Of a stretch of DNA of 64,000 nucleotides, positions 4,972 to 20,110 are shown piece by piece. The notes beneath the pieces were generated by a model. The model had not been told where the DNA came from. It saw only the letters and a program-made list of their open reading frames with translations, and did no database searches. The position numbers and the translations under genes are program-made. The stretch's first letter is position 1; each line of letters begins with the position of its first letter. This DNA is from an uncultured Faecalibacterium sp. GTDB taxonomy: Bacteria > Bacillota > Clostridia > Oscillospirales > Ruminococcaceae. The stretch spans positions 1-64,000 of the forward strand of contig CAKSYT010000007.1 of NCBI GenBank assembly GCA_934524985.1, in the 5' to 3' direction.

Positions 4972-5291
4972 TCCGGCAATTCTCCTTTCAAAACGGTGGG
5001 GATGCCGCAGAACATCTGCACCACGCACGCAGCACGCGCCGCCAGCATACAGGCCAGCCGTCCGGCGTTTTCCCGCGCAGCACGCTCTGCGGAGTCTATG
5101 GGCACCACACCGCCGCCCACCTCGGTGGACAGCACGATATCATAAGCGGATAATTTGTCCGCGAGTTTCTCAAGTTCAGCGTTGTCTTTGCACCCGGCGG
5201 CAAGCTGCTGCACATCCGCAATGCAGCGGCCGGACAGGGTGCGGGCAAAGGTGCGCTTGCCGCTGTAAAGCGGCCCGGTGATCAAGATCAT
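4965..5291 (-). CDS. Short degenerate CobU-like protein
   Basis: This 108-residue protein resembles the two ends of adenosylcobinamide kinase/guanylyltransferase (CobU) with the middle missing. The N-terminus has a P-loop-like GPLYSGKR (6-13), but the usual S/T after the lysine is arginine. The part around the guanylylated histidine is absent. The C-terminal half keeps the CobU block STEVGGGVVP and a final CGIPTVLKG. CobU is normally about 175-180 residues. A full-length copy lies one gene upstream (6037-6558), and cobS separates the two. The start overlaps the cobS stop by four bases and the ribosomal frame is intact, so it is probably expressed. It may be a partner subunit of CobU or a decaying duplicate. 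Confidence 0.75.
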   Translation of the reverse strand: MILITGPLYSGKRTFARTLSGRCIADVQQLAAGCKDNAELEKLADKLSAYDIVLSTEVGGGVVPIDSAERAARENAGRLACMLAARAACVVQMFCGIPTVLKGELPEC

Positions 5292-6040: not shown

Positions 6041-6558
6041 TTTTCCACCCCTTTATAATACATAGGGATGCCGCACACCACCCGCACCACGGCGTCTGCC
6101 CGGGCGGCAAGGGCGTTGTTCACCCGCGCCAGCGCCAGCAGATAGCGGTCGGTGTCCCCGGCATAGTCTGCGCCGCCGCTGAACACCTCGTTAGAAACAA
6201 CGATCAAATTTTCGCACTGCGCGGCAAGGTGATCCAGACCCTGTAAAATGTGCTCGGCGGCAGCATCGCCCGCCCCGGCGGGGTCGTACAGCTCGTTGGC
6301 GGTCAGGTTGCCCAAATCCTCCAGCAGCGCCGTACCCCTGCGGGGCAGACGCACTGCTTCTAAATGCAGCGGGCATTCAATAGTCTCAAACTGCTTTGCA
6401 GCGCGCATTTTGCGGTGCTTTTCCACCCGGGCAGCGCACTCGGCATCCCACACCTGCATGGTGGCCAGATAATACCGCGGCAAAGCGCTGCGCAGCACAA
6501 GGGCCTCGGCGTATTCGCTTTTGCCGCTGGCTGCGCCGCCCAGCACCAGCGTCAGCAT
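6037..6558 (-). CDS. cobU: Adenosylcobinamide kinase / guanylyltransferase (CobU)
   Basis: CobU phosphorylates adenosylcobinamide and then transfers GMP to it, giving adenosylcobinamide-GDP for CobS. The 173-residue protein has an intact P-loop GGAASGKS (7-14) and KHRKMR, which aligns with the region of the guanylylated histidine known in Salmonella CobU. The usual VSNEVGxGIVP segment is altered: it reads VSNEVFSGGADYAGDT, while the C-terminal CGIPMYYKG remains. The short paralogue at 4965-5291 keeps the segment this copy has lost. The ATG at 6558 overlaps the cobT stop by seven bases; a longer upstream frame lies inside cobT and is rejected. Confidence 0.9.
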   Translation of the reverse strand: MLTLVLGGAASGKSEYAEALVLRSALPRYYLATMQVWDAECAARVEKHRKMRAAKQFETIECPLHLEAVRLPRRGTALLEDLGNLTANELYDPAGAGDAAAEHILQGLDHLAAQCENLIVVSNEVFSGGADYAGDTDRYLLALARVNNALAARADAVVRVVCGIPMYYKGVEK

Positions 6559-7625
6559 TGGGGCGTATACGACGCAATGCCGCCCTCCGCAAAGGAATAG
6601 CACCCCTCGTACACCGCCAGCGCCATGTCCCACAGCGGAATGCTGGCCACTGCGCCGGTACCCTCGCCCAGATGCAGCCCGGCGGTAAGCAGGGGCGCTT
6701 TGCCCAGCGCTTCCAGCACCAGCCAGGCGGCAGGCTCGGTGGAGCAGTGGCTGGCGAACACGGCCTTTGCCGCTGCCGGGCACAGCCGCACGGCGCACAA
6801 AGCCGCCACCCCGCTGATGAAGCCATCCATCAGCACCGGCACGCCCGCCAGCGCCCCGCCCAAAAACATCCCGCACAGCCCGGCGATATCAAAACCGCCC
6901 AGCTTGCTCAGTACGTCCAAGACGTCATCTGGGGCGGGGCTGTTGCAAGCGATGCCCCGCCGGATGGCGTCCACCTTGCGGGCAAGCCCTGCATCGGAAA
7001 GCCCCGCACCGCGCCCGGTCATGGTATGCACCGGCTGTGCCAGCAGCACGGCGGCCACGGCGCTGGAGGAGGTGGTGTTGCCGATGCCCATTTCGCCGGT
7101 CGCCACCAGCCCGTAACCCTCGGCGGCAAGCTGCCGGGTCAGGGCAATACCCCGGCCAATGGACTCCACTGCTTCGGCGCGGGTCATGGCAGGGCCTTTG
7201 GTAAAGTCCGCAGTTCCGGCGGCAATGCGGCAGTCCCGCACGCCGGGTACCGGTGCACCGGATATGCCCATATCCACCGGCAGCACATCGCAGTGCGCCG
7301 CCTGCGCCATCCGGCAGACGCTGGTGCGCCGCGCGGCAAGGTTTTCGGCTACGGCGCGGGTCACGCTCTGGTCGGTCTGGCTTACACCCTGTGCCACCAC
7401 GCCGTTGTCCGCGCAGAGCACCGCCACCGCCCGGCGGGAAAAATCAAACTGTGCCGTGCCGGTCAGCGCGGCGGCATCCTCCAGCAGGGTCTCCAGTGCG
7501 CCCAGCCCGCCCAAGGGCTTGGCAAGGCTGGCCCAGTGGGCGTGGGCGGCGGCGCGGGCGGCTTCGTCCGGCGGGGTGATGGCAGCAAGCAGCTGCATCA
7601 GTTCAGCTTCGGTCATTTTCGTCAT
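6552..7625 (-). CDS. cobT: Nicotinate-nucleotide--DMB phosphoribosyltransferase (CobT)
   Basis: CobT makes alpha-ribazole phosphate from nicotinate mononucleotide and the lower-ligand base. The 357-residue protein has the expected KPLGGLGALE near the N-terminus, CADNGVVAQGVSQ, ATGEMGIGNTTSSSAV and the C-terminal GEGTGAV carrying the catalytic glutamate of the family. Start ATG at 7625 overlaps the cbiA stop by four bases; a second in-frame ATG at 7616 is possible. No bluB or bza genes for lower-ligand synthesis are in the window, so dimethylbenzimidazole or another base would come from elsewhere. Confidence 0.95.
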   Translation of the reverse strand: MTKMTEAELMQLLAAITPPDEAARAAAHAHWASLAKPLGGLGALETLLEDAAALTGTAQFDFSRRAVAVLCADNGVVAQGVSQTDQSVTRAVAENLAARRTSVCRMAQAAHCDVLPVDMGISGAPVPGVRDCRIAAGTADFTKGPAMTRAEAVESIGRGIALTRQLAAEGYGLVATGEMGIGNTTSSSAVAAVLLAQPVHTMTGRGAGLSDAGLARKVDAIRRGIACNSPAPDDVLDVLSKLGGFDIAGLCGMFLGGALAGVPVLMDGFISGVAALCAVRLCPAAAKAVFASHCSTEPAAWLVLEALGKAPLLTAGLHLGEGTGAVASIPLWDMALAVYEGCYSFAEGGIASYTPQC

Positions 7626-8962
7626 CCTTTGTGTTTCAAAAAGTGCTGCGCCGCCTGTACAAAGCGGCGGGGCAGGGCAGTGCCCGCCCAGTAAAGATGT
7701 GGGAAACCTGCGTATAAATGCGCGTTTGCAAAGCCGCATTCCCACTGCCTTTTTTCGGTTTTGCGCACAGAAAAGTCTGTGCCATTTTCGGAGGAATCCC
7801 AGTGGTGGAATTCGTGGATGGGCAGCGCTTCTCCGGTGCGGAAAAGCATACTGTCGGCCTTTGCCGTCATGGCGGCATAGCCAAAGCGCACCAGCCGCCC
7901 GGCGTTGTGCCCGATGCCCGGCAGCACACCCGCCGTGGGGTAAACCTTGCCGTCCGTGCCCTCCAGCGCCTGCCCTAGGTACAGAAAGCCGCCGCACTCG
8001 GCGGCAGTGGGCAGACCCTCTTGCACAGCGTCCCGGATGGCAGCACGCAGGGCGCAGTTCTCGCTCAGCTGCCGGGCGTACAGTTCCGGGTAGCCCCCGG
8101 GCAGGTACAGCCCGCCGATATTTTCCGGTAAAGCCGCGTCCCGCAGCGGGCTGAAAAACGCAAGTTCCGCACCCGCGTCCCGCAAAGCGTCCAGCGTTTC
8201 GGCGTAGGCAAAGCAGAAGGCTTCGTCCCGCGCCACGGCAATGCGGACGGCGGGCGTGCACGGTGCGTCAAGCTGCGGCGCAGCCGGAGCAGGGCGGTCA
8301 GTCAACGCTGCCAGCTGTGCCCAGTCCAGTACAAGGGCATCGGCTAATTGCCCCAGCTTCTGCTGCAAGTCAACGATCTCCCCGGCGGTTTTCAGCCCGA
8401 GGTGACGGCTCTCGATGGCACACCCCGGCAGGTGGGGCAGATACCCCACCACCGGCAGCCCGGTCTCAGCTTCCAGCATCGGGCGCAGCGTTTTGTACAA
8501 AGCTTCGGAGCAATCGTTGAGCAGAATACCCACGATGTGGCTGGGCGTGCGGAACTGCAAAAGCCCCCGCAGCTCGGCGGCAAGGGTGATGCTTGCCCCT
8601 TTGGGCTGCACCACCAGCAGCACCGGCAGGGACAGTGTATCGGCCAATTCCCAAGCACTCGCACGGGTGGTCAGCCCCTGCCCGTCATAAAAGCCCATGG
8701 CACCCTCGCATACGGCGGCACCGTGCCCGGCGGCATAGCGGGCGTAAAGCGTGCGCACCGTATCCGGGGAGGAAAGGTAGAGGTCTAAGTTGTGGCTTTC
8801 CACCCCCAGCGCGCTGCGGTGGAACATGGGGTCAATGTAGTCCGGCCCGCATTTGAAGGCGCAGGGGTTAGCCCCGCGCCGCTGCAACGCGGTAAGCACA
8901 GCACAGGTAACGGTGGTCTTGCCGCTGCCGGAGCGCGGCGCGGCGATGAGAAACTGCATCAT
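7622..8962 (-). CDS. cbiA: Cobyrinate a,c-diamide synthase (CbiA)
   Basis: CbiA amidates the a and c carboxylates of cobyrinate using glutamine and ATP. The 446-residue protein starts with the P-loop APRSGSGKTT (8-17), continues with CGPDYIDPMFH, and ends in a class I glutaminase-like domain with nucleophile cysteine in AAECGGFLYLG and a late histidine in NAHLYAGFPH. Length is normal. It overlaps cbiET and cobT by four bases on each side. The related HgbA/CobB enzymes share the fold, but this is the anaerobic pathway form by context. Confidence 0.95.
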   Translation of the reverse strand: MMQFLIAAPRSGSGKTTVTCAVLTALQRRGANPCAFKCGPDYIDPMFHRSALGVESHNLDLYLSSPDTVRTLYARYAAGHGAAVCEGAMGFYDGQGLTTRASAWELADTLSLPVLLVVQPKGASITLAAELRGLLQFRTPSHIVGILLNDCSEALYKTLRPMLEAETGLPVVGYLPHLPGCAIESRHLGLKTAGEIVDLQQKLGQLADALVLDWAQLAALTDRPAPAAPQLDAPCTPAVRIAVARDEAFCFAYAETLDALRDAGAELAFFSPLRDAALPENIGGLYLPGGYPELYARQLSENCALRAAIRDAVQEGLPTAAECGGFLYLGQALEGTDGKVYPTAGVLPGIGHNAGRLVRFGYAAMTAKADSMLFRTGEALPIHEFHHWDSSENGTDFSVRKTEKRQWECGFANAHLYAGFPHLYWAGTALPRRFVQAAQHFLKHKG

Positions 8963-10155
8963 GTCCGTGCCCCCGTAATGAGGAATACCGGGTTATTGGC
9001 CATCAGCAGGTGCAGACTGCCCGCCGTTTTTGTGCGGCTGACCGCAATTTGTGTCACCTCGGCAGCAAGACCGTGTGCAGTCAAAGCAGCCACGGCGGCG
9101 CTGAGCGTTTCCAGCGCAATGGCGGCAATGCACAGCCGCGCGGCTGGATTTTTGTGCAGCACGGCGTCTATAACAGCGTCCATGCTGCCCTTTGTGCCGC
9201 CGATGAATACGGCATCCGGGGCGGGCAGCGTGTCCAAAACTTCAGGCGCTTTGCCCTCGAGCAGGGCCAGATTATAAGCGGAAAATTTCTCCCGGTTTTT
9301 CTGGATGAGCGCACAGGCTTCCGGGTCACACTCTACGGCATACACCTGCCCGGCAGATGCGGCGAGCGCCAGCTCCACGCTCACGCTGCCGGTGCCTGCG
9401 CCCACGTCCCATAGGGTATCCGTGGGGGTGACCGCCAGCTTTGCCAGCGCGGCGGCGCGCACCTCTTGTTTCGTCATAGGCACAGCGCCCCGGATAAAAG
9501 CATCGTCCGGCAGGCCGGGGGTACGGCGGGGCGGCAAGGCTTCCCGCTCAATGAGCAGCACGCTCAGCGGTGCAAAGCTCTGCGCTGCCAGCTCCCGGGC
9601 AAGGCCAAAGCGGATGGTTTCTGCCGGGGTGCCAAGGTTTTCACCTACAAGGGCGTGGGCAGCGCCCAGCCCGGCAGTGGTCAGCTTCGCGCAAAGGGTG
9701 GCAGGGGTATCCTCGCCGCCGGTGAGGAAAAACACCTGTGGATGCGCTAAAACCTCGGCTACCGAGTCGCAGGTGCGGCCATGGGCAGACACCAGTTTCC
9801 AGTCCTGCCAAGGGCGTCCCACAGCGGCGGCTAAAAGCTGCACGCTGGAAAGCCCGGGCAGTACCCGGACAGAGTATCCCATAACCCGCAGCAGGGGCAG
9901 CAGCTTTGCCGCACCGGAGTAAAACCCGGTGTCGCCGCTGTACAAAACAGCGGTGTCCGTATCCGGCTGTGCGGCAAGACAGGCAAGGATATCCTCCGGC
10001 TTATACACGGCCTTGCGGTCAGCAGTGCACCCCGCCGGTAAATGCTCCAACAGGCGCTTTGCTCCAAGGATAAGCCCTGCGCCTTGCAGCGCAGCCAGCC
10101 CTTGCGCGGTCAGGCTTTCCGGGCTGCCGGAGCCCATTCCGATCAGAGAGATCAT
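8959..10155 (-). CDS. cbiET: Cobalt-precorrin-7 C5/C15-methyltransferase fusion (CbiET)
   Basis: The 398-residue protein fuses two SAM-dependent activities. Residues 1 to about 200 are the CbiE (C5-methyltransferase) domain, beginning ISLIGMGSGSPE. From about 205 the CbiT domain (C15 methylation and decarboxylation of the acetate side chain) follows, with the class I SAM motif WDVGAGTGSVSVE. The same order occurs in CobL of the aerobic pathway, but the neighbours cbiD, cbiG and cbiK mark this as the anaerobic route. It overlaps cbiJ and cbiA by four bases. Confidence 0.95.
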   Translation of the reverse strand: MISLIGMGSGSPESLTAQGLAALQGAGLILGAKRLLEHLPAGCTADRKAVYKPEDILACLAAQPDTDTAVLYSGDTGFYSGAAKLLPLLRVMGYSVRVLPGLSSVQLLAAAVGRPWQDWKLVSAHGRTCDSVAEVLAHPQVFFLTGGEDTPATLCAKLTTAGLGAAHALVGENLGTPAETIRFGLARELAAQSFAPLSVLLIEREALPPRRTPGLPDDAFIRGAVPMTKQEVRAAALAKLAVTPTDTLWDVGAGTGSVSVELALAASAGQVYAVECDPEACALIQKNREKFSAYNLALLEGKAPEVLDTLPAPDAVFIGGTKGSMDAVIDAVLHKNPAARLCIAAIALETLSAAVAALTAHGLAAEVTQIAVSRTKTAGSLHLLMANNPVFLITGART

Positions 10156-10889
10156 ACCAGAACCTCCTTGCAGCGTGCCAGAATTTGTGCGGCAGTTTGT
10201 CCGTTTTCAGTCGGGCGGCGCACCACGATCAGCTGTGCACCGGTGTCCTGCGCGGCCTGTGCCTTTTCGGCAAAACCGCCCACAGCGCCGCCGTCCTTCG
10301 TGACCAGATACCGGATGGAGAATTGCTTCATCAGGGCGCAGTTCAGCGCATAGCTGAAAGGCCCCTGCATGGCAATGATGTTTCTGTGTGGGATACCGGC
10401 AGCCTCGCAGGCGGCAATGCCATCCCGCGTGGGCAGCACCCGGGGGAACAGCCGCTCCGGGCTGAGCGCCGCAAAGGCGGCAAGCTCTTTTGCACCCGTG
10501 GCCAGCAGCACATTGCCGCTGCACCCGGCCAGAAACGCAGCGGCGTGGGCGGCGCTGGCAAACACCATGCTCCCGGCAGGCAGCGGGCTTTCTTCCCGCA
10601 GCAGACGGTGATATTCCACCCCGGCTGCGGCGCACGCTGCCCGGATGTTTTTGGTGGCGTCCACCGCATAGGGGTGGGTGGCGTCCACGCACAGGGCAGT
10701 GCCCTGCAAAAGAGCGGTCATTTCTTCGGGGGTCAGCCGCCCACAGTGCACGGTGATGCCGTCCGCTTCGCCCTGCTCCTCCGCGCCCAGCGGGGTGGCT
10801 ACGCTGACCAGTACCTGTGCGCCCAGTGCCGCCAGCTGCCGGGAAAATACCCGCCCTTCGGTAGTGCCGCTGAAAACCACTGCCTTCAT
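10152..10889 (-). CDS. cbiJ: Cobalt-precorrin-6A reductase (CbiJ)
   Basis: CbiJ reduces the macrocycle of cobalt-precorrin-6A with NAD(P)H. The 245-residue protein opens with FSGTTEGR, the nucleotide-binding start typical of CbiJ/CobK, and has DATHPYAVDATKNIR (near residue 69) and a late YLVTKDGG segment, both family landmarks. The ATG at 10889 overlaps the cbiH stop by four bases; an upstream extension of the frame is rejected. It sits between cbiH and cbiET. Confidence 0.9.
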   Translation of the reverse strand: MKAVVFSGTTEGRVFSRQLAALGAQVLVSVATPLGAEEQGEADGITVHCGRLTPEEMTALLQGTALCVDATHPYAVDATKNIRAACAAAGVEYHRLLREESPLPAGSMVFASAAHAAAFLAGCSGNVLLATGAKELAAFAALSPERLFPRVLPTRDGIAACEAAGIPHRNIIAMQGPFSYALNCALMKQFSIRYLVTKDGGAVGGFAEKAQAAQDTGAQLIVVRRPTENGQTAAQILARCKEVLV

Positions 10890-11653
10890 CTGCGGTACCC
10901 CCGTGGGGTGACCATTCTGCCGCCCAGCTGCTTTGTGGCGGCATTGCCGATGTACACGGTGGTGAACATATCTACCGCAGTGCTTTCCAGCTGCGCAAGG
11001 GTCAGGACGCGGGCGGTCTGACCCTCCCGACCGATGTTGCGCACAAGACCGCAGACGGTATCGGCGCTTTTGCCGTTTGCCAGCAGAATGCGCACCGCCT
11101 TTGCCAGATAGTCCGGCCTGCCCTTGGAGGAGGGATTGTACAGCGCAACGCAGAAATCCCCCATGGCGGCACAAGCCAGCCGCTTCTCAATGACCTCCCA
11201 CGGGGTCAGCCGGTCGGAAAGGGAAATGACGCAGAAATCGTGCGCCAGCGGCGCGCCCAGCACCGCCCCGCCGCTGAGGGCAGCGGTCAGCCCGGGCACG
11301 ACTTCCACGGCAACGTCCGGGTAGTCCGGGGCCAGTTCCAGCAGGGGACTTGCCATGCCGTACACCCCGGCATCGCCAGAGCAGACCAGCGCCACCCGCT
11401 TGCCGGTGTGTGCTTTTTCCAGCGCCCAGCGGCAGCGGTCGATCTCCTGCGTCATGCCGGTAGAATAGTATTCCTCGCAGGGGAATTCATCGCGGATGAG
11501 GTCAAGGTAGACCTTATACCCGCAGATAGCGTCAACGCTTTCCAGCGTGTTTGCAGCCTGCTGGGTCATATAAAAAGGCTCGCCGGGGCCAAGCCCCACG
11601 ACATAAACTACCTTCTCAGGACGGTCAATGTCAATTTCCATCACGTCAATCAT
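10886..11653 (-). CDS. cbiH: Cobalt-precorrin-3 C17-methyltransferase (CbiH)
   Basis: CbiH methylates C-17 and drives ring contraction in the anaerobic pathway. The 255-residue protein has the tetrapyrrole methylase N-terminus VVYVVGLGPGE, then YSTGMTQEIDRC, and VCSGDAGVYGMASPLLE, the typical SGDxGVYGMA block. No iron-sulfur extension is seen. The ATG at 11653 is chosen because GGAGGT lies six bases upstream; a later ATG at 11641 is less likely. It overlaps the cbiG stop by eight bases. Confidence 0.93.
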   Translation of the reverse strand: MIDVMEIDIDRPEKVVYVVGLGPGEPFYMTQQAANTLESVDAICGYKVYLDLIRDEFPCEEYYSTGMTQEIDRCRWALEKAHTGKRVALVCSGDAGVYGMASPLLELAPDYPDVAVEVVPGLTAALSGGAVLGAPLAHDFCVISLSDRLTPWEVIEKRLACAAMGDFCVALYNPSSKGRPDYLAKAVRILLANGKSADTVCGLVRNIGREGQTARVLTLAQLESTAVDMFTTVYIGNAATKQLGGRMVTPRGYRR

Positions 11654-12644
11654 TTTGCCACCTCCAGTCCGGGGCAAAGGGCCTGCACGCCAGCGCAAAG
11701 GTCACGCCGTTGCAGGCAAATTTCGGGTGAAATAAGCTGCCGCCTGCGTCCAGGACTGCCGCCCGTTCGCAGACATTGTCCACCCCGGTCACGCTTTGTA
11801 CAAAGGGGGAGGGGGTGAACTGTCCGGGCGCGCTGCGCAGCTGCACGGCAGAGTAAAAACGCACCGGCCAGCCGTGCGCCTGACAAAAGGCCAGTAAGCC
11901 CGGTTCGTTCTGCTTCAGGTCGATGCTTGCGGCGGCGGTAACTGCCTGCACAGAAAGGCCATGCCGGGCGCCGAAAGCGGCAAAAGTAGCTTCCAGCGTG
12001 TCGGCGCTTGTGCCCCGCTTGCAGCCGATGCCCAGCACCCCGATGTGCGGCACAAGATGCAGCGCCTGTCCGGTGGGGCAGAGGGTGAGTGCAAGGTCGG
12101 CTTTTTCCGGGGCATCGGCGGGGAATAACCCGGCGGGCGCAGTGCCCGTTACCGGGAAATCAGTCCAGTAATAGACCGGCTGTCCGGCCAGTAATTTGCT
12201 GCTGACCAGCTTGATGCGCTCCGGCTCCAGCACCATGCAGTTTTGGTGCTTTGCCCACTCGTCCACTGCAAAAATGCCGTGGGCATCGGTGGCGGTGGTG
12301 ATCACCGGCACAGCACCGCATACAGCAGCAATGGCCCGCGCCAGATCGTTCGCGCCGCCCAGATGCCCGGACAAAATGGGCACGGCAAACCGCCCGCATT
12401 CATCCACCACCACCACAGCCGGGTCGGTGGTCTTGCTCTTGCAGTGGGGCGCGATAGCCCGCACTGCAATGCCTGCTGCGCCTACAAATATCAGCGCATC
12501 CGACTGCACAAACTGCGTGCTTGTCCATGCTGCAAGAGAAGCGCCGTTCTGCCCGCACCGGGCAACGCTGCCGGGCAGGGCAGCGGCAAGGCGTTTTGCC
12601 AGCGCAAGACCGGTATCCGTAAAGGCAAGGTAGGCGCGGGTCAT
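11646..12644 (-). CDS. cbiG: Cobalt-precorrin-5A hydrolase (CbiG)
   Basis: CbiG opens the lactone ring of cobalt-precorrin-5A and releases the C2 unit as acetaldehyde. The 332-residue protein has the N-terminal block ALIFVGAAGIAVRAIAPH, PILSGHLGGANDLA and the C-terminal GIGCKRGTSAD, all conserved in CbiG. It is an independent protein here, whereas some Clostridia fuse it to other cbi domains. It overlaps cbiF by four bases and cbiH by eight. Confidence 0.93.
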   Translation of the reverse strand: MTRAYLAFTDTGLALAKRLAAALPGSVARCGQNGASLAAWTSTQFVQSDALIFVGAAGIAVRAIAPHCKSKTTDPAVVVVDECGRFAVPILSGHLGGANDLARAIAAVCGAVPVITTATDAHGIFAVDEWAKHQNCMVLEPERIKLVSSKLLAGQPVYYWTDFPVTGTAPAGLFPADAPEKADLALTLCPTGQALHLVPHIGVLGIGCKRGTSADTLEATFAAFGARHGLSVQAVTAAASIDLKQNEPGLLAFCQAHGWPVRFYSAVQLRSAPGQFTPSPFVQSVTGVDNVCERAAVLDAGGSLFHPKFACNGVTFALACRPFAPDWRWQND

Positions 12645-13399
12645 ACCGGCTCTCCTTTGCGGAACTCGGTGGTAAAGGCGGGATCGTACAGCTTACTGCG
12701 CTCGTACTGCGTGCCAAGAAAATCTCCCACCACGATAAGTGCTGTCTTGGTAATGCTCGCTGCACGGGTGCTCTCGGCCAGAGAACCAACCGTGCACCGC
12801 ACGATTTTTTCTTCCGGCCAGCTGGCCTTGTACACCACGGCGGCGGGGGTGTCCGATGTGTACGCGCCCTGCAAAAGCGCCGCCTGTACCTTATCGATCA
12901 GTCCGATGGACAGAAAGATCACCATGGTCGCGCCGTGTGCGGCAAGGCTTGCCAGCCTTTCCCGCTCCGGCATAGGGGTGCGCCCTTCCATGCGGGTGAT
13001 GATGACCGTCTGACTGACTGTGGGCAGGGTATACTCGGCGTTCAGCGCAGCAGCAGCGCCGCAAAAGCTGGAAACACCGGGGGTATCATCGTAACAAATG
13101 CCGTCTGCGTCCAGTGCATCCATCTGCTCCCGGATGGCACCGTACAGGCAGGGGTCGCCGGTGTGCAGACGCACGGTGGTCTTGCCGGCAGCTTCCATTT
13201 GGCGCATCACGTCCAGCACCTGTTCCAGCGTCATCTCGGCGCTGTTATAGATAGCACAGCCCGGCTTTGCCAGCCCCAGCAGCGCCGGGTTGACCAGACT
13301 GCCCGCGTAAATAATGCAGTCCGCAGTCTGTAAAAATGCTGCGCCGCGCCGGGTGATCAGATCCGGTGCGCCGGGCCCGGCGCCCACAAAATGTACCAT
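12641..13399 (-). CDS. cbiF: Cobalt-precorrin-4 C11-methyltransferase (CbiF)
   Basis: CbiF methylates C-11 of cobalt-precorrin-4. The 252-residue protein starts MVHFVGAGPGAPDLIT and has LHTGDPCLYGAIREQMD and the DDTPGVSSF segment, typical of CbiF/CobM. The ATG at 13399 has AAGGAG eight bases upstream. An in-frame ATG at 13405 forms a TAATG overlap with the preceding stop but leaves only two bases after the ribosome binding site, so it is less likely. It is the first stand-alone methyltransferase of the operon. Confidence 0.93.
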   Translation of the reverse strand: MVHFVGAGPGAPDLITRRGAAFLQTADCIIYAGSLVNPALLGLAKPGCAIYNSAEMTLEQVLDVMRQMEAAGKTTVRLHTGDPCLYGAIREQMDALDADGICYDDTPGVSSFCGAAAALNAEYTLPTVSQTVIITRMEGRTPMPERERLASLAAHGATMVIFLSIGLIDKVQAALLQGAYTSDTPAAVVYKASWPEEKIVRCTVGSLAESTRAASITKTALIVVGDFLGTQYERSKLYDPAFTTEFRKGEPV

Positions 13400-13404
13400 T
13401 TGCA

Positions 13405-15318
13405 TTACTCCTTCCATTCGTTCAGCAGGCGGGCGGCAGTCTCGGTCTGTCCCAGCGGGCCGTGCTGGTTTGAAAACAGCACCGCGCCCACCCGGAACGC
13501 CCCGCCCGCACGGCGATCAAGATGCAGCTGGATGGCGGCAAGCAGGCTTTGCAGCACCGGCTCCCGCAGACCGGCAGCATCCAGAATTTCCAGACAGGCA
13601 TCCGTGGTGGCGGCTTTGTACAGCGCAGTGCATACCTCCCGGTCGGCACCGCACAGGGCGGCGTGGGTGCAGAACAGCTCCGTGCGGCAGTCTGCCGTGT
13701 GGGAGTGGGTGTTCATAATGCCGCCCGCCAGCTTGCACAGCTTGCCGACATGCCCCACCAGCAGCACCTGTTCAAAGTGTGCCGCCGCTGCCATATCTAT
13801 CGTGTCTCCGATAAAGTTGGACGTCTTGACCACCGGAATGGCGGCAAACTGCGGATACGTTTCGTGCAGATAGTCCAGCCCGTAGTTGCCCGGGGCAAGA
13901 ATGAGCCGCCGGTGGTCTTTTGCCCGCAGCGCCGCCTGATTCATCTCCAGTTGGATGGTGTCCAGAATGGCCTGCTGGCTCATGGGCTCTACGATGCCGC
14001 TGGTGCCCAGCACCGACAGCCCGCCCTCCACCCCGATATGGGGGTTGAAGGTGCGCCGGGCTACCTCCTCGCCGCCGAGGATAGAGATGGTCACGGCAAA
14101 GCCACCGGGGTAACAGGCGGCTTCCGCCTCCCGGTGCAGCGCCTCGGTGATCATCTGCCGGGGCACATGGTTGATGGCGGCTTGCCCGACCGGCTGGTCC
14201 AGCCCGGGCTTTGTCACCCGGCCAACCCCCGCACCGCCGGTAATGCGTACCTCCGGCGTGCCGGGCAGCAGCGTCACCGTGGCAGTCACCGGCAGACCGG
14301 TGGTCACGTCCACGTCATCACCGCCGTCCTTTTCAATGGCGCATTCCGCGCCATCGGCAGCAGCGCGGCAGAACAGGGGAGCCACCTCCACCACGATTCC
14401 CTTCGGCGTGCGCAGGGCGACCGTTTCCGGCGCTGTGCCGGTCAACAGCAGCCGGGCAGCCCCGGCAGCGGCCAGCGCCGCACAGGTGCCGGTGGTGTAC
14501 CCGCAGCGCAGCAGCTTTTGCCCGCTGCGTACATAGTGTTCGAATTGAGGTTTTTGAGGCTTCGGCGGGTCAAAAACAGCACTGTACTGTTCTTCCGTCA
14601 GGCCGTAGAGCGCTTTAATGTTATCCCGGGCAAAGGCCTGCGCCGGGGGCATGGGCGCAGAGACGCCGTGCGGTGAAACACAGACCACCGCATCCGCGAT
14701 CTTCTGCGCCATGTCCAGCTCATGCAGGGTGACAATGACCGCAAGCTGCTGCTCATGCGCCAATTTTTGCAAAATGGTCAGCAGCTCGATCTTACCCTTT
14801 ACATCTAAAAATGACGTGGGCTCGTCCAGCAAAAGCACCTGCGGCTGCTGACAGACTGCCCGCGCCAGCAGAATGCGCTGCCGCTGCCCATCGCTAACAC
14901 AGTTGAAGTCCCGGTCAGCCAGATGCGCCGCGCCCACCAGTTCCAGCGCATTCTGTACTTGTTTTTTGTCCTCGGCAGAAAGGATGCCCAGCCGCCCGGT
15001 GTAGGGGATACGTCCCGCCGCCGCAAACTCAAAACAGGTGGTCAGCTCTGTACGGCGGGTGTGGGGCAGCATCAGTGCCAGCTTTTGTGCCCGGGCACTG
15101 CCGGAGATGCGGGCAAGCTCCTGCCCGTCCAGCAGCACCGCGCCGCCCAAAGGGGCAAGCTGCCCGGCCAAGGTTTTGAGCAGAGTGGATTTGCCTGCGC
15201 CGTTCGGGCCGATGAGCGCCAGTACCTGCCCCTTGGCAGCGCCCAGCGCGATATCCCGGGCAAGGGCAGCTTTGCCGTAGCCGATGGCGAGCGCTTTTGT
15301 TTCAACGAGGTTTTTCAT
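13405..15318 (-). CDS. cbiD: Fusion: FecE-type ABC ATPase + cobalt-precorrin-5B C1-methyltransferase (CbiD)
   Basis: The 637-residue reading frame joins two complete proteins. Residues 1 to about 255 are an ABC ATPase of the iron/cobalamin uptake type, with Walker A GPNGAGKST (38-46), a signature region VSDGQRQR (SDGQ in place of SGGQ), Walker B VLLLDEPTS and the H-loop VTLHELD. From about 266, LRCGYTTGTCAALAAAG opens a full-length CbiD (about 370 residues), with GGAGVGRVTKPGL, FNPHIGVEGGLSVLGTSGIVEP and LLVGHVGKLCKLAGGIMNTHS. No stop, restart or ribosome binding site separates them. The ATPase would partner the permease encoded just upstream (15315-16331), so a transporter subunit and a biosynthetic enzyme are made in a fixed ratio. 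Confidence 0.92.
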   Translation of the reverse strand: MKNLVETKALAIGYGKAALARDIALGAAKGQVLALIGPNGAGKSTLLKTLAGQLAPLGGAVLLDGQELARISGSARAQKLALMLPHTRRTELTTCFEFAAAGRIPYTGRLGILSAEDKKQVQNALELVGAAHLADRDFNCVSDGQRQRILLARAVCQQPQVLLLDEPTSFLDVKGKIELLTILQKLAHEQQLAVIVTLHELDMAQKIADAVVCVSPHGVSAPMPPAQAFARDNIKALYGLTEEQYSAVFDPPKPQKPQFEHYVRSGQKLLRCGYTTGTCAALAAAGAARLLLTGTAPETVALRTPKGIVVEVAPLFCRAAADGAECAIEKDGGDDVDVTTGLPVTATVTLLPGTPEVRITGGAGVGRVTKPGLDQPVGQAAINHVPRQMITEALHREAEAACYPGGFAVTISILGGEEVARRTFNPHIGVEGGLSVLGTSGIVEPMSQQAILDTIQLEMNQAALRAKDHRRLILAPGNYGLDYLHETYPQFAAIPVVKTSNFIGDTIDMAAAAHFEQVLLVGHVGKLCKLAGGIMNTHSHTADCRTELFCTHAALCGADREVCTALYKAATTDACLEILDAAGLREPVLQSLLAAIQLHLDRRAGGAFRVGAVLFSNQHGPLGQTETAARLLNEWKE

Positions 15319-16331
15319 CGCACATCCTCCCGGTTGCGGCGCAGCAGCAGCCCGATGACCACCGGTGCGCCGAATACAGCGGTGACTGCGCTGATGGAAA
15401 GCTCCATGGGCGCAAACAGGCTGTGGGCAATTAAATCACACAGCAGGCAGAACGCTGCCCCGCCCAGGCAGCACCCCGGCAGCACATACAGCGGGCGGGC
15501 GCTGCCCAGCAGCTGTTTGACAAGGTGCGGCACGGCGATGCCTACAAAGGAGATCGGCCCCGCAAAGGCGGTAACACAGGCGGCAAGCAGGCTGGAAAGC
15601 AGCACCAAAAGCCGGGAGAAGTGCCGCACATCTATGCCCACGCTGCGGGCGTAGGCTTCGCCCATCTGGTAAGCAGCCATGGGCTTTGCAAGGCAGAAAG
15701 CCGCCGCCAGCGCGGGCAGCACCACCAGCGCCGCCGTGCGCACGTTGCCCCACGTCATGCCGGAAAAGCTGCCCTGCGACCAGTTGTGCAGGTTGACGAT
15801 GCTGCTGTCCTGCGCAAAGGCCACCACAAACTCGGTGACGGCAGAGCAGATGTAACCGATCATTACGCCGCAGATTACAAGAATGCTCATGCGCTGCACC
15901 CGGCGGGCAGCGGCCAGCACAAATGCCATAGCCGCCATAGCGCCCGCAAAGGCCGCAAGAATGAGCACGGCAGAACTGGTCAGCAGGCCGTAGTTCAAAA
16001 ACAGCACCATTACCAGCGCCACCGCCAGCTTTGCTCCGCTGGAAATGCCCATCACGAAAGGGCCGGCAATGGGGTTAGCGAAAAAGGTCTGCAGCAGATA
16101 GCCCGCCGCCGAGAGCGCAGCGCCCAGTAACGCGGCCATCACCGCGCGGGGCAGACGCAGCTGGGTAATGATGCCTACGCTCAGCGCGTCCTGTCCGCGG
16201 CCGGTCAGGGCGGCAAGCACGGACTGCGGGGTAAGCGCAACGCTGCCCCAGAACAGGCTCACGGCAAACAGCACTGCCAGCAGCAGGGCAAGGCAGCAGT
16301 AAGATAAAACAAGGCGTTTGCGGCTGGTCAT
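15315..16331 (-). CDS. FecCD/BtuC-family ABC permease
   Basis: The 338-residue protein is an integral membrane permease of the iron-chelate/cobalamin importer family, with about ten hydrophobic segments. It has the family blocks LRLPRAVMAALLGAALSAAG, NPIAGPFVMGISSGA and the cytoplasmic coupling region AGPISFVGIAVPHLVKQLLG near residue 250. It overlaps the ATPase-CbiD gene by four bases and follows the binding-protein gene after ten. Context in a B12-regulated operon suggests a corrinoid, tetrapyrrole or cobalt-chelate substrate; sequence alone does not settle this. Confidence 0.9.
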   Translation of the reverse strand: MTSRKRLVLSYCCLALLLAVLFAVSLFWGSVALTPQSVLAALTGRGQDALSVGIITQLRLPRAVMAALLGAALSAAGYLLQTFFANPIAGPFVMGISSGAKLAVALVMVLFLNYGLLTSSAVLILAAFAGAMAAMAFVLAAARRVQRMSILVICGVMIGYICSAVTEFVVAFAQDSSIVNLHNWSQGSFSGMTWGNVRTAALVVLPALAAAFCLAKPMAAYQMGEAYARSVGIDVRHFSRLLVLLSSLLAACVTAFAGPISFVGIAVPHLVKQLLGSARPLYVLPGCCLGGAAFCLLCDLIAHSLFAPMELSISAVTAVFGAPVVIGLLLRRNREDVR

Positions 16332-16341
16332 AAGCGGCTCC

Positions 16342-17484
16342 TCAGGTGATTTTGGTCAAAAAATGCAGGGTGTCGGGGTCGGCAGTCTCTCCGGTAAAAA
16401 CGGCATGGAGATCCAGCATAAAATCTGCCAGCGCCATGCTCTGCTGGAAAAAGCTGGGTGTCGTGCACCAGATGTCCCCGCTTTGCACCGCCTTGCATTC
16501 TGCCAGCAACGCGCAGCGGGCGAGCAGCTCTTCCTTGGTGGAAATGGTGCCCTCGATGGTGCCGTTGTAAATGAGTACATCGGCGTCCTTGACCCTGGCA
16601 TAAAGGTCCTCCAGTGGGATATTCATGGTGGAAAGGCTGTTACCGCTGTCGGCAAGGTCTGCAAAAACGTATTCACCCCCGGCCATGCCGATCATCTGCG
16701 CCACATAGTCTCCGCTTTTGCGCACAGTGGCAAGGCCGCTGGAAGTAATGGAGAAAAACGCGCAGCGCTTGCCGGTGGAGGGCTGTTCCAGCAGCGGCGC
16801 AATGCGCTGCGCCTGCCGGGCGAATATCTCCTCGGCAAGGGCTTCCTTCCCCAGCAAAATGCCGTACAGCTTGATCCATTCCATCCGCGCCAGCGGGCTG
16901 CTCTCGTAGCTGGAGCGCTCCACCAGCACCGGAATGCCAAACCGCTCCAGCTGCTCCTTCACCTCCGGGGTGTGGTAGATCATGGTGTTTTCCACTGCAA
17001 GGCCGCATTCTGCGGTCAGGATGCGCTCGTAGTCCGGGGCGCTGTATTTGCCCGCGTAGGCAATGCGCCCGGACTGCATGGTCTGTTTTGCCTCGTCCAG
17101 ATACCAGCCCTCGGCACGGGTGCCGGAAAGGGCAATGCTGTCCAGCGCGTCCAGATGGAGAAATAAGTCCATGGCAGAGGTGGACACCAGATAAATATTC
17201 TGCACTGGCTGCTGCAAAACAGTTACCCCGTCAGGCACGGTGCGCAGGGTGGCAGCGGCCTCCGGCCGGACAAGGAACTTTGCCTGTACGTCCGGGATGG
17301 TCAGCAGGGTAGAGCCGTCTGCATAGCAGTCGGCGGTAAACTGGGTGGCATAGTCCAGCGGGTAGGCATGGTCAAATACCAGCTCGTCCGTATCAGCCGG
17401 TGCGGTGGGCGCGGCAGCGCAGCCTGCAAGCACCAGCGTGGCGGCGGGCAGTGCCTTTAAAAATTGAGCGCGGGTCAGCTTCAT
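16342..17484 (-). CDS. ABC substrate-binding lipoprotein, FecB/BtuF type
   Basis: The 380-residue protein has a short signal peptide with lipobox LAGC (cysteine 22) and is expected to be anchored outside the membrane. The mature part resembles the FecB/BtuF group: an N-terminal region ending in SGTRAEGW, a mid-protein helix, then KRCAFFSITSSGLATVRKSGDYVAQMIGMAGGEYVF and a C-terminal DIWCTTPSFFQQSMALADFM. It would deliver substrate to the permease 10 bases downstream. The ligand is unknown; the riboswitch points to corrinoid or a precursor. Confidence 0.87.
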   Translation of the reverse strand: MKLTRAQFLKALPAATLVLAGCAAAPTAPADTDELVFDHAYPLDYATQFTADCYADGSTLLTIPDVQAKFLVRPEAAATLRTVPDGVTVLQQPVQNIYLVSTSAMDLFLHLDALDSIALSGTRAEGWYLDEAKQTMQSGRIAYAGKYSAPDYERILTAECGLAVENTMIYHTPEVKEQLERFGIPVLVERSSYESSPLARMEWIKLYGILLGKEALAEEIFARQAQRIAPLLEQPSTGKRCAFFSITSSGLATVRKSGDYVAQMIGMAGGEYVFADLADSGNSLSTMNIPLEDLYARVKDADVLIYNGTIEGTISTKEELLARCALLAECKAVQSGDIWCTTPSFFQQSMALADFMLDLHAVFTGETADPDTLHFLTKIT

Positions 17485-17490
17485 GGAAGG

Positions 17491-18336
17491 TTACTCCAAG
17501 GTAAAGGTCAGGGTGTATTCGATTTCGTGGGGCTTGCTCATGGCAACAGTGTCGGCGGTAACAGCCAGCGGGGTGCCCAGAGCGGCTACGGGAATTTCAA
17601 AGGTAGAGTTGCCCTCGGTGTTAGTGGGCAGATACTTCTCGCCTTCCACGATCATGTAATCGTAGTTGGGGCTGCTCCACACGATGGTAGCGGTCATCTT
17701 GCCCTCTGTCACGGTCAGGGCGGCAGGGCTTTCCACGGTGGCGCGGCCAGAGCCGCCCTCCAGCACCACGGCAGCGGTGTATGCGCCGTCTGCGGGGGTC
17801 CCGGTGGTCTGCTCGGTCTTAGGCTCGGCGTTGCGCACGCTGACGATGTGGTCGTACCACTTGCCCTTGGTGCCCAGCAATGCCAGCTGGAAGTCAGTGT
17901 CCAGTGCTTCCACCGGGATGTCGTAGCCGTACACCTCCTCGGTGGTGCCGTCTGCGTAGGTAACAGTGTCCACGGTGGGGATGAGCCATGCAGTCTTGTT
18001 GGCCTCGGCATCGGCGGCAAGGCCGGGGTAGAGGTTCACGATCTTTTTGGAAGCCAGACTGACGTGGAAGGTCATCACGCCGTTTTCCACGGTCAAAGTG
18101 CCCTTGCCGTTGCAGGCCTCGCTGGTGTGGAACATACTGCTGTCGGTTTCAAAGTCAGCGGTGTATACGCCATCCGGCAGGGCAGCCTCTGCCACAGCAG
18201 AGAAAGCCACCACGGAAGAAGCAGCCACAGAGCTTGCCGCAGCAGAGGAGGCGGGGGCAGCCCCGCCGCAGCCTGCCAGAGAAGCAGCCAGCACCACACC
18301 GGCCAGAGAAATAGAAACAAACTGTTTGCAGCGCAT
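17491..18336 (-). CDS. Lipoprotein with two repeated beta-rich domains, cobalamin operon
   Basis: The 281-residue protein has a signal peptide with lipobox LAGC (cysteine 23) and a serine/alanine-rich linker. Two domains follow, about residues 53-170 and 180-281. Each opens with a DGxYTA motif, continues with a TVENG/TVTEG turn and a WSS- or LASK-containing strand, and ends with an IPVxAL segment. The second contains the acidic aromatic stretch SSPNYDYMIVEGEKY and a late PHEIEY. The DGxYT opening recalls NEAT (haem-binding) domains, but I cannot confirm that by alignment. Position between cbiK and the importer suggests it holds or passes a tetrapyrrole or cobalt at the cell surface. The ATG at 18336 has GAGGT eight bases upstream. 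Confidence 0.7.
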   Translation of the reverse strand: MRCKQFVSISLAGVVLAASLAGCGGAAPASSAAASSVAASSVVAFSAVAEAALPDGVYTADFETDSSMFHTSEACNGKGTLTVENGVMTFHVSLASKKIVNLYPGLAADAEANKTAWLIPTVDTVTYADGTTEEVYGYDIPVEALDTDFQLALLGTKGKWYDHIVSVRNAEPKTEQTTGTPADGAYTAAVVLEGGSGRATVESPAALTVTEGKMTATIVWSSPNYDYMIVEGEKYLPTNTEGNSTFEIPVAALGTPLAVTADTVAMSKPHEIEYTLTFTLE

Positions 18337-18423
18337 AAATAAATACCTCAGTATCCTAAATTTTTGCCCGGCGTCTAAACTGCCGGGGTAGGGGCGGTTT
18401 CTCCTCGTGCGGGGAATGCGCCC

Positions 18424-18472
18424 ATAAAAGAAGCCCTCTCCGTGTGCTTGGGCAGCGCCGGAGAGGGCTTCT
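18424..18472 (-). terminator. Intercistronic hairpin after cbiK, possible partial terminator
   Basis: A perfect 13-bp stem (18429-18441 with 18460-18472) starts eight bases after the cbiK stop codon on the minus strand and is followed by TTTTAT. The 143-base gap it occupies is the only sizeable gap in the operon. It may lower expression of the downstream genes relative to cbiK or protect the cbiK transcript end. Confidence 0.65.
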
Positions 18473-18479
18473 GAATCCA

Positions 18480-19715
18480 TTAGCCGTTCAGAAGATCCAT
18501 AGCGGCCTTGGTGTGTGCAATGTACAGCTGCTGGATATCCGCAATGCGGCCCAGACCCGAGATCTGGCAGTCCACATTCTCAAAGCAGCCTGCGGCGGTA
18601 AACTGGCTCAGCCAGCTGTCGGCGTCCTCACCGGCCATATCGTTGTTGGCGTGGTCGCCTGCCACCACCATCAGCGGGCGCAGGATGACCTTGGTGTAAC
18701 CGGCAGCCTTCACGGCCTCGATGACAGCCTCGCAGGAGGTCTCCTCAGGCTCGCCCTCCACAGTGCCGACGAACACATTGTCGTAGCCAAGGGTCTGCAT
18801 GGTAGTCTGCATCTGGCTGTAACTCACCTTGGCGGTGTGGCTAGTGCCGTGGCCCATAAAGACAAAAGCAGTCTTATCGGCAGCGGCAGCAGCGGCGCTA
18901 TCGTAACCGGCTTCCTTCACAGCGGCAGCGGTAACAGCCTTGGCAACGGCTTCCTTATCTGCATTGATGACGGAAGCATCCGCGCCGACCTCGCCCAGCA
19001 GTGGCTCAGCCACAGCGACGCTCTCAAACTTGTCGCGGTACTGGTCCAGCATCTCGTTCATCTCGTCGTACTCGGCACCGTGCATCAGATGGGTGGGCTG
19101 CACGATCAGGTTCTTCACGCCGTTTGCCACAGCGCGGTCCAGTGCCTGCTGCATATTGTCGATCTTCTCGCCATCGCGGGCCTGCACATGGTTGATGATG
19201 ATCTGTGCGGTAAAGGCGCGGCGCACGCTCCAGTCGGGGTATGCGGCCTGCAAAGCGTCCTCAATGCCCTTGATGTCAGCAGCGCGGCTGTCGTTGAAGG
19301 AGGTGCCGAAGGACACCACCAGCAGCTCGTTCTCACCGATCTCATCAGCGTTGCGGGCATCGTCCTTGGAGGCATCGCCGGTGTCGCGGCCAAAGTAGTC
19401 AGGGTCGGCGTTCTCGCCCTCCACCAGCTCCTTCTGGGCATCGGTCAAAGCGTCCCAAGCGGCCTTTGCGGCTTCGCACTGGGCATCGGTGTCATCGGTG
19501 CGCTGCTGCACATAGATGGCATCGATCAGGTCTGCCACGTTCTGTACGGCCAGCGCGTCAGCGTCTGCACCGGAAGCTTCGCTGCTGGCGGCAGAGCTGG
19601 CAGCAACAGTGCTGGCAGTGCCGGAAGCAGCCCCGCCGCAGCCGGTCAGTACACCGGCGCACAGAGCCAGAGCGGTCAGAGCGGCCGCTGTTTTGCGGAT
19701 GTTGCGTTTTTTCAT
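18480..19715 (-). CDS. cbiK: Exported lipoprotein sirohydrochlorin cobaltochelatase (CbiK)
   Basis: CbiK inserts Co2+ into sirohydrochlorin, the first committed anaerobic step. This 411-residue version has a signal peptide with lipobox LTGC (cysteine 26), an Ala/Ser linker and an extra N-terminal segment to about residue 130. A full chelatase core of about 280 residues follows. Residues matching the metal and active-site positions of Salmonella CbiK are present: Glu 215 in HGAEYDEM, His 289 in FMGHGTSH and His 355 in VAGDHANNDM. Salmonella CbiK is cytoplasmic and about 264 residues; a periplasmic CbiK is known in Desulfovibrio. The export signal puts this enzyme outside the membrane. It is the first gene after the riboswitch. 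Confidence 0.93.
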   Translation of the reverse strand: MKKRNIRKTAAALTALALCAGVLTGCGGAASGTASTVAASSAASSEASGADADALAVQNVADLIDAIYVQQRTDDTDAQCEAAKAAWDALTDAQKELVEGENADPDYFGRDTGDASKDDARNADEIGENELLVVSFGTSFNDSRAADIKGIEDALQAAYPDWSVRRAFTAQIIINHVQARDGEKIDNMQQALDRAVANGVKNLIVQPTHLMHGAEYDEMNEMLDQYRDKFESVAVAEPLLGEVGADASVINADKEAVAKAVTAAAVKEAGYDSAAAAAADKTAFVFMGHGTSHTAKVSYSQMQTTMQTLGYDNVFVGTVEGEPEETSCEAVIEAVKAAGYTKVILRPLMVVAGDHANNDMAGEDADSWLSQFTAAGCFENVDCQISGLGRIADIQQLYIAHTKAAMDLLNG

Positions 19716-19832: not shown

Positions 19833-19892
19833 ATCTTACAGGCTTTTTGGTACAACCAATTCCTCGTGATCTGGGGCGGCAAAGCCCCGGTA

Positions 19893-20110
19893 CCAACAGC
19901 GGGCAGGTTTCCTGACTGAAAGCTCAACGCCCGCTGCCGCCTTCCCAAGCCGGATGGCTCAGTGACCGGTGCAAAAGCACCCTGACAGTGGACTCCCTTA
20001 TCACAGTGACGAGATCGTGCGGGATTTGCACCCGCTTCCCTTTTAACGTTCCTGTCACTGCCCGGTGGGGCAAAGTGACGGAACGCACCTGCTGTTTTCT
20101 GTTCAGTTCG
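19893..20110 (-). promoter_or_regulatory. Adenosylcobalamin riboswitch controlling the cobalamin operon
   Basis: Read on the minus strand, the leader contains the parts of a cobalamin riboswitch in order: a GGGAAGC...GGTGCAAATCCC core ending in GCACGA (near 20014-20043), the GCC.CTGTGATAAGGGAGTCC element (near 19985-20008) and the B12 box AGTCAGGAAACCTGCC (19902-19917). A terminator follows at 19783-19832. Binding of cofactor should stop transcription of the whole operon. Confidence 0.93.

What the first reader, a model, noticed from the sequence alone, without database searches (positions are those of the whole stretch)
15315..19715. Surface cobalt-insertion and uptake module: exported CbiK, two-domain lipoprotein, binding protein, permease, ATPase-CbiD
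Seen: the first five operon genes are two lipoproteins and a FecBCD-type importer, and the first lipoprotein is a cobaltochelatase with all expected active-site residues. Known: most CbiK act in the cytoplasm, with a periplasmic form in Desulfovibrio. Inference: sirohydrochlorin (own or from neighbours) may receive cobalt outside the membrane and be carried in as the cobalt complex for the CbiD-linked pathway. CbiL, the next enzyme, is not in the window. This could be an undescribed tetrapyrrole-salvage system.
Basis: partly seen in the sequence, partly recalled or inferred. Interest (0 to 1): 0.85.

Follow-up and report, generated by a model that had tools for sequence, protein, structure and literature searches.

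The report
Surface cobalt-loading tetrapyrrole salvage system
Many gut bacteria seem to have lost the early half of vitamin B12 synthesis and instead load cobalt onto a scavenged ring-shaped precursor on the cell surface, pass it along carrier domains and import it, which would explain how they get a precursor they cannot make.

Summary
On the minus strand, behind a cobalamin riboswitch, lie an exported CbiK, a lipoprotein with two NEAT-like domains (A, B), a lipoprotein binding protein, a FecCD/BtuC-type permease and an ATPase-CbiD fusion, then the other corrin genes except CbiL. In 80 of 80 related loci CbiK sits beside domain A; the order CbiK-A-B-binding protein holds in 75 of 80, and fusions join CbiK to A (29 of 80) and B to the binding protein (25 of 80). 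Of 50 genomes with the exported CbiK, 49 have CbiD but 24 lack HemC; 23 of these 24 lack CobA and 23 lack a full precorrin-2 dehydrogenase. In 146 sampled Clostridia, an exported CbiK is the only CbiK in 9 of 13 CbiD+ HemC- genomes with CbiK, and in 0 of 20 CbiD+ HemC+ ones. Best reading: salvage of sirohydrochlorin (or factor III) with cobalt inserted outside the membrane. Substrate and chemistry are inferred. The window's own genome was not available; its nearest relative, a complete Faecalibacterium chromosome, lacks HemC, CobA and CbiL.

The parts
19885..20107 (-). cobalamin riboswitch in front of the operon
   Evidence: RF00174, 102.2 bits, gathering 31.5; same element upstream of the exported CbiK or its block in 21 of 22 related loci scanned (L036 lacks it)
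18480..19715 (-). exported (lipoprotein) CbiK-type class II chelatase, with an N-terminal extension before the chelatase domain
   Evidence: PF06180 244.4 bits; E215/H289/H355 equal to 1qgo E89/H145/H207; signal peptide in 80 of 80 relatives (71 by a lipobox pattern; 9 Sec-type by eye)
17491..18336 (-). lipoprotein with two NEAT-like domains (A 17818-18180, B 17494-17796)
16342..17484 (-). lipoprotein substrate-binding protein of the BtuF/FecB type
   Evidence: PF01497 92 bits; fused to domain B in 25 of 80 relatives
15315..16331 (-). FecCD/BtuC-type permease
   Evidence: PF01032 259.7 bits; best NCBIfam BtuC NF003001 206.9 bits, under its 334 cut-off
13405..15318 (-). importer ATPase fused to CbiD (cobalt-precorrin-5B methyltransferase)
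   Evidence: PF00005 108 bits and PF01888 295 bits; TIGR00312 395.7 bits over its cut-off of 200
212..13417 (-). [quoted passage not shown] no CbiL
   Evidence: Pfam/NCBIfam hits; the names CbiH, CbiET, CobC and CobD within their Pfam families are by position and recall; CbiL absence

Best explanation
A salvage route into cobamide synthesis. A metal-free isobacteriochlorin released by other microbes (sirohydrochlorin, or its C20-methylated form factor III in lineages without CbiL) meets the exported CbiK, which inserts cobalt outside the cytoplasmic membrane. The cobalt complex is handed from CbiK to NEAT-like domain A, then to domain B, then to the binding protein, and is imported by the BtuC-type permease and its ATPase. 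It enters the corrin pathway at CbiL, or at CbiH where CbiL is missing. A cobalamin riboswitch, presumably repressing when cobamide is plentiful, controls the operon. Shown here: gene content, export signals (by pattern and eye), active-site residues, riboswitch, NEAT-like fold, gene order and fusions, and the co-occurrence with loss of HemC, CobA and PC2DH. Inferred: substrate, metal, direction of the handover, activity.
For: (1) CbiK and domain A neighbours in 80 of 80 loci; all five functions found in the fetched stretch in 61 of 80. (2) Fusions K=A in 29, A=B in 39, B=P in 25, K=A=B in 6, A=B=P in 4 of 80; order K-A-B-P in 75 of 80. (3) CbiD in 49 of 50 block genomes; in the class sample the 11 genomes in which I saw an exported CbiK have CbiD, against 45 of 146 overall. 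(4) HemC absent in 24 of 50; over-cut-off CobA in 1 of those 24 against 25 of 26 HemC+; PC2DH of 80 bits or more in 1 of 24 against 25 of 26. In 22 of 24 the exported CbiK is the only CbiK, while 18 of 26 HemC+ genomes carry a second one (p 1e-5). At E 0.001 no PF01903 (CbiX) place lies outside the CbiK places. (5) Class sample: exported CbiK alone in 9 of 13 CbiD+ HemC- genomes with CbiK over 100 bits, 0 of 20 CbiD+ HemC+ (p 1.9e-5). (6) In a CbiK tree of 54 rows the exported label needs 3 changes and starred branches force 3; the small exported pair G019/G079, apart from the large clade, is HemC- too. (7) Riboswitch in the window and 21 of 22 loci. (8) Window against L004 (G149, without CbiL): dN/dS 0.05-0.21 for 11 genes.
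Against: No ligand or activity is shown. Four of 13 CbiD+ HemC- class genomes with CbiK have only a cytoplasmic one (G044, G068, G090, G131), so outside insertion is not obligatory for such auxotrophs; three more (G002, G022, G144) have a weak hit or none. Eight of 26 HemC+ block genomes have only the exported CbiK, so there it coexists with the means to make sirohydrochlorin. Nineteen of 80 loci lack one or more of binding protein, permease, ATPase in the fetched stretch, seven of them with over 21 kb held (L023, L029, L036, L046, L054, L057, L061); G079, G072 and G092 show no such transporter in 17-18 kb either. CbiL is missing in 13 of 50, including the window's nearest relative, so sirohydrochlorin alone would not suffice there. 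The window CbiK scores 192.7 bits against the 400-bit cut-off of NCBIfam's cobaltochelatase equivalog. The P. gingivalis homologue is reported as haem-binding and as putting Mn into protoporphyrin (passages of PMC10913741 and PMC13402209). Genomes related by descent are not independent counts.
Confidence: 0.7

Rival explanations
1. A haem or iron system like Isd or Iht: CbiK acts as a haem-binding or metal-removing lipoprotein, NEAT domains relay haem, the ABC transporter imports haem or iron.
For: The NEAT structures matched are haem proteins, many with haem bound; P. gingivalis Iht has a CbiK-like lipoprotein with binding protein, permease and ATPase and is read as haem/iron uptake (passages of PMC10913741).
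Against: Cobalamin riboswitch in front; location beside or inside the corrin operon in many loci; CbiD in 49 of 50 block genomes and in the 11 class genomes with an exported CbiK, although haem uptake would serve non-producers too; ATPase fused to CbiD in the window.
Confidence: 0.12
2. A cobamide or cobinamide importer (BtuFCD-like); the exported CbiK and NEAT-like domains only capture corrinoids.
For: Best NCBIfam match of the permease is BtuC; riboswitch control fits.
Against: Non-producers need cobamide import most, yet in the class sample exported CbiK was seen only in CbiD+ genomes (11; the N-termini of 4 CbiK hits in CbiD- genomes were not examined); the chelatase active site is kept (A2 columns E156, H230, H296 invariant in 38 sequences). 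The permease is below the BtuC cut-off.
Confidence: 0.1
3. Own sirohydrochlorin is exported, gets cobalt outside and is taken back in; the outside step is part of normal de novo synthesis.
For: Eight of 26 HemC+ block genomes have the exported CbiK as the only CbiK.
Against: 24 of 50 block genomes lack HemC and 23 of these lack CobA, so they should have no sirohydrochlorin of their own; 18 of 26 HemC+ genomes carry a second CbiK. The eight may use another enzyme inside, such as the PC2DH/chelatase (recalled).
Confidence: 0.05

Closest known systems
Porphyromonas gingivalis Iht system (IhtA-E; IhtB, which I take to be FetB, PDB 9b86)
   Different: No NEAT domains and no riboswitch mentioned in what I read; an outer-membrane receptor IhtA; function given as haem/iron uptake or Mn-protoporphyrin formation. 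That IhtB and FetB are one protein is recalled.
Periplasmic CbiK of Desulfovibrio vulgaris (PDB 2xvx-2xvz)
   Different: No NEAT partner or fusion known to me; the proposed role in haem transport is recalled, not read here.
Isd-type NEAT haem relay (IsdA/B/C/H, IsdX, Hbp2)
   Same: NEAT-fold domains in series on surface proteins feeding a FecBCD-type importer (folds; the relay is recalled).
   Different: Domains fused to or beside a chelatase, cobalamin riboswitch, PF05031 below cut-off in the window protein, H-x-x-x-Y in the last strand of domain B instead of the Y-x-x-x-Y that I recall.
Tetrapyrrole precursor salvagers (Shelton et al., PMC6461909)
   Same: Corrin pathway without the early steps, mostly Firmicutes (section 13 and passages); a review gives 0.6% as precorrin-2 salvagers from that work (passages of PMC8123684).
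   Different: No uptake system for the precursors in the passages read; its main text holds no occurrence of 'sirohydrochlorin' or 'Faecalibacterium'.

Membership tests
CbiK / class II chelatase (PF06180) | Pfam family score | tested here: met
   244.4 bits, cut-off 26.2
CbiK / class II chelatase (PF06180) | active-site residues E89, H145, H207 of S. enterica CbiK | tested here: met
   E215, H289, H355; invariant in the 38 rows of A2
NCBIfam NF047852 sirohydrochlorin cobaltochelatase (equivalog) | curated cut-off 400 bits | tested here: not met
   192.7 bits: not filed as that equivalog
CbiK / class II chelatase (PF06180) | inserts cobalt into sirohydrochlorin | not testable with these tools
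   needs an assay
NEAT domain (PF05031) | Pfam gathering score 32.8 bits | tested here: not met
   window protein 22.3-23.6 bits; 27 of 37 members of A1 match at E 0.01 or better, best 1.2e-9
NEAT domain (PF05031) | NEAT beta-sandwich fold | tested here: met
NEAT domain (PF05031) | Y-x-x-x-Y haem ligand motif in the last strand (recalled) | tested here: inconclusive
   invariant H218-x-x-x-Y222 there; register against NEAT structures not verified
FecBCD/BtuFCD importer (type II) | Peripla_BP_2, FecCD and ABC_tran domains | tested here: met
   92, 259.7 and 108.2 bits, all over cut-off
vitamin B12 permease BtuC (NF003001) | equivalog cut-off 334 bits | tested here: not met
   206.9 bits
tetrapyrrole precursor salvager | lacks steps upstream of the salvaged precursor | tested here: met
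   for the nearest complete genome G001: no HemC, no CobA, no PF13241 hit over 32.2 bits; HemA, HemL, HemB, HemD not tested; the window's own genome is not held
tetrapyrrole precursor salvager | complete corrin ring pathway | tested here: not met
   CbiL absent in G001 and in the window; CbiL present in relatives such as G148 (F. longum)
Iht system of P. gingivalis | haem binding by the CbiK-like lipoprotein | not testable with these tools
   needs a binding assay

The most novel reading that the evidence does not exclude
A vitamin pathway whose first retained step lies outside the cell: neighbours leak metal-free factor II/III, the surface chelatase 'claims' it by putting in cobalt, and a NEAT relay rebuilt for corrinoid precursors carries the cobalt complex in. 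In Faecalibacterium and other CbiL-less lineages the entry compound is (cobalt-)factor III, so HemC, CobA, PC2DH and CbiL are all dispensable. The same logic would recast P. gingivalis IhtB/FetB as a precorrin-2-auxotroph's cobalt chelatase.
Probability: 0.3. Interest if true: 0.92.

Novelty: new variant of a known kind. Interest (0 to 1): 0.82.

Why it matters
Bacteria that keep the corrin pathway but lack its early steps were described in 2018 and the ALA-dependent kind was verified (PMC6461909), but no uptake system for the precursors is named in the passages I read. This block is a concrete, testable candidate in common gut genera (titles include Faecalibacterium, Gemmiger, Blautia, Butyrivibrio, Dorea, Eubacterium ramulus). 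It would mean cross-feeding of an intermediate that is neither a vitamin nor a common porphyrin, an extracytoplasmic enzyme step in B12 synthesis, and a NEAT relay for something other than haem. It would also change how B12 producers are counted in gut genomes: genomes scored as producers because they carry cbiK and cbi genes may depend on a neighbour's tetrapyrrole.

Tried and rejected
Haem/iron import and cobamide import as the general role: see rivals. A hidden CbiL in the CbiL-less genomes: a relaxed TIGR01467 search of these 13 gave at most 52.4 bits, far under the 163-bit cut-off; several of the places coincide with CobA places or lie near CbiD, and I read them as the other methylases. 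CbiL in the window: only paralogue matches. An independent CbiX chelatase: the PF01903 places all lie within CbiK places. Over-reading of CobA: five HemC- genomes (G157, G162, G166, G177, G192) have TIGR01469 hits of 157-170 bits, under the cut-off of 185 and near CbiD, read as CbiF. A decaying pathway in the CbiL-less lineage: dN/dS between window and L004 is 0.05-0.21 over 11 genes, which argues against it. PDB sequence searches with the two-domain lipoprotein, its alignment, the domain B profile or the binding protein gave no match of E under 0.01; only the fold searches did. A protein search with the lipoprotein reached its limit (8000 of 8000 scored candidates, best 120 listed, none with a telling name). 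The predicted fusion L023 (pLDDT 81.8, pTM 0.56) has linkers under pLDDT 50, so I draw nothing from how its domains lie to each other. The promoter/terminator scan gave nothing useful.
Full report
What is there. On the minus strand, a cobalamin riboswitch (19885-20107) precedes CbiK (18480-19715), a two-domain lipoprotein (likely start 18336), a binding protein, a FecCD/BtuC-type permease and an ATPase-CbiD fusion, then CbiF, CbiG and the other corrin and nucleotide-loop genes down to CbiC at 212-886. CbiL is not in the window: F. longum CbiL finds only paralogues at 40 bits or less. The window's own genome is not held. Its nearest relative, L001/G001 (Faecalibacterium sp. I4-1-79, title 'complete genome'), has a CbiK 98% identical and the same order of the genes listed from CbiK through CbiA.

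The parts belong together. In 80 of 80 loci CbiK is the neighbour of domain A. Writing K, A, B, P for chelatase, two domains and binding protein, the order K-A-B-P holds for the parts present in 75 of 80 (two of these carry an extra A or B); the exceptions are L070, L077, L036, L042 and L073. Fusions: K with A in 29, A with B in 39, B with P in 25, K=A=B in 6, A=B=P in 4 (fusions judged by one open frame from stop to stop). Sixty-one of 80 loci show all five functions. Of the 19 others several are short or cut, but L023, L029, L036, L046, L054, L057 and L061 are over 21 kb long and still lack one or more of binding protein, permease and ATPase; there the importer must lie elsewhere, have diverged, or be absent. 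A shorter exported CbiK in five class genomes (G062, G084, G085, G104, G138) sits in the same kind of block with A, B, binding protein, permease and ATPase beside corrin genes; G019 shows CbiK, permease and ATPase only, and G079, G072 and G092 show no such transporter in 17-18 kb. The riboswitch lies upstream in 21 of 22 loci scanned.

Who has it. I searched 50 of the 80 genomes (20 that I took for isolates by title, 30 metagenome-assembled or unsure; completeness not told). CbiD: 49 of 50. HemC: 26 of 50. Among the 24 without HemC, over-cut-off CobA is in 1 (G182) against 25 of 26 with HemC; a PC2DH hit of 80 bits or more is in 1 (G182; G192 has a 47-bit partial hit) against 25 of 26. Eleven of the 20 isolates lack HemC. 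The exported CbiK is the only CbiK in 22 of 24 HemC- genomes (exceptions G162, G172), while 18 of 26 HemC+ genomes have a second (this count includes partial second hits, G170 and G176). So in nearly all the HemC- genomes the pathway is missing up to and including sirohydrochlorin formation, as far as tested (HemA, HemL, HemB and HemD were not), and the first enzyme kept is the one outside the membrane.

Sample not chosen by this CbiK. In 146 Clostridia genomes drawn by the tool (completeness 95 asked; G001 is one), CbiD is in 45, HemC in 36, CbiK at E 0.001 in 47. Of the 16 CbiD+ HemC- genomes, 13 have a CbiK over 100 bits: 9 exported only, 4 cytoplasmic only (G044, G068, G090, G131); G002 has a weak hit, G022 and G144 none. 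Of 29 CbiD+ HemC+ genomes, 20 have such a CbiK: 18 cytoplasmic only, 2 both, none exported only (p 1.9e-5). Exported or not was judged by eye; second copies in G057, G085 and G092 were called cytoplasmic from frame length alone. The 11 exported cases are all CbiD+; the N-termini of four hits in CbiD- genomes (G028, G048, G094, G095) and of hits under 100 bits were not examined. The sample is related by descent, so I also built a tree of 54 CbiKs (19 of the 80 block loci, 33 class loci, two PDB sequences): the exported label needs three changes and starred branches force three, though three changes may be gains or losses; the 27-row clade with the window's relatives (HemC- and HemC+ genomes), the pair G019/G079 (both HemC-) and FetB (long branch, place unsure) are separate. 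So the exported state has changed more than once, and the small pair repeats the link with HemC loss.

CbiL. It is absent in 13 of 50, 10 HemC- and 3 HemC+, and none of the 13 has a second CbiK (against 20 of 37, p 5.5e-4). The window's lineage is among them (G001, G147, G149), while F. longum (G148) keeps CbiL beside CbiD. The other genes are under purifying selection. If the pathway works there, the imported compound must already carry the C20 methyl group (factor III or its cobalt form), or another methylase does CbiL's job. That metal-free factors II and III are excreted by cobalt-starved producers is recalled, not read here.

Mechanism and standing. The best-supported account is extracytoplasmic cobalt insertion followed by NEAT-type relay and import. 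Export signals, residues, fold, order, fusion, regulation and the genomic logic are shown; substrate, metal and handover are inferred. The four cytoplasmic-CbiK exceptions suggest that such auxotrophs can also insert cobalt inside; the eight HemC+ genomes with only an exported CbiK remain unexplained.

What is known. Exported CbiK is known from D. vulgaris (titles of 2xvx-2xvz) and P. gingivalis, where IhtB with IhtC-E is read as haem/iron uptake (PMC10913741, passages) and FetB as inserting Mn into protoporphyrin (PMC13402209, passages). P. gingivalis also lacks precorrin-2 synthesis but keeps the later genes (PMC4410737, passages), which is the same genome logic. One paper says in passing that the cobaltochelatase both transports sirohydrochlorin and puts in cobalt, citing work on Desulfovibrio (PMC12654859, passages). 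A table in a review lists F. prausnitzii under another gene set, with CobN (PMC8123684, passages). The control genome Bacteroides ihuae rings for CbiK, CbiD and CbiL and not for HemC, but it also rings for CobA and PF13241, and whether its CbiK is over the cut-off or exported was not told, so it is only a hint. In my searches of the held library no paper joins 'NEAT domain' with 'cobaltochelatase' (0 papers), and searches on sirohydrochlorin uptake or cross-feeding, precorrin-2 salvage with transporters and tetrapyrrole salvage by surface lipoproteins (listings only, apart from the papers named) showed no description of this system. Subscription papers are mostly not held, so this is not proof of absence.

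Noticed in passing
window 18428-18472, - strand: Between CbiK and the NEAT lipoprotein lies an inverted repeat (AGAAGCCCTCTCCG ... CGGAGAGGGCTTCTTTT) with a loop of about 16 bases; it looks like a terminator that could set CbiK above the downstream genes (sequence). The terminator scan allows loops up to 8 only.
   Followed up: no
G001, G147, G149, G161, G173, G175, G178, G183, G185, G187, G190-G192: Genomes with CbiD but no CbiL by TIGR01467; no replacement enzyme is apparent.
   Followed up: partly
window 19341-19538, - strand (CbiK residues about 60-125): The exported CbiK of this group carries a conserved segment, partly helical in the L023 model (VA.LIDAIYVQ...AWDALTDAQK), before the chelatase domain; its role is unknown.
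   Followed up: partly
L071 10001-12676: One open frame of 931 residues holds CbiK, domain A and a second CbiK stretch.
   Followed up: no
G022 and G144: CbiD-like proteins of only about 150 bits in genomes without a CbiK or HemC match; perhaps a different use of the CbiD fold.
   Followed up: no
window 4965-5480, - strand: A second, partial CobU-like stretch (PF02283 C-terminal part, 42 bits) beside the full CobU at 6037-6876.
   Followed up: no
G168-G171: CbiD match split in two within frames of 685-705 residues, so CbiD is fused or carries an insert in this group.
   Followed up: no
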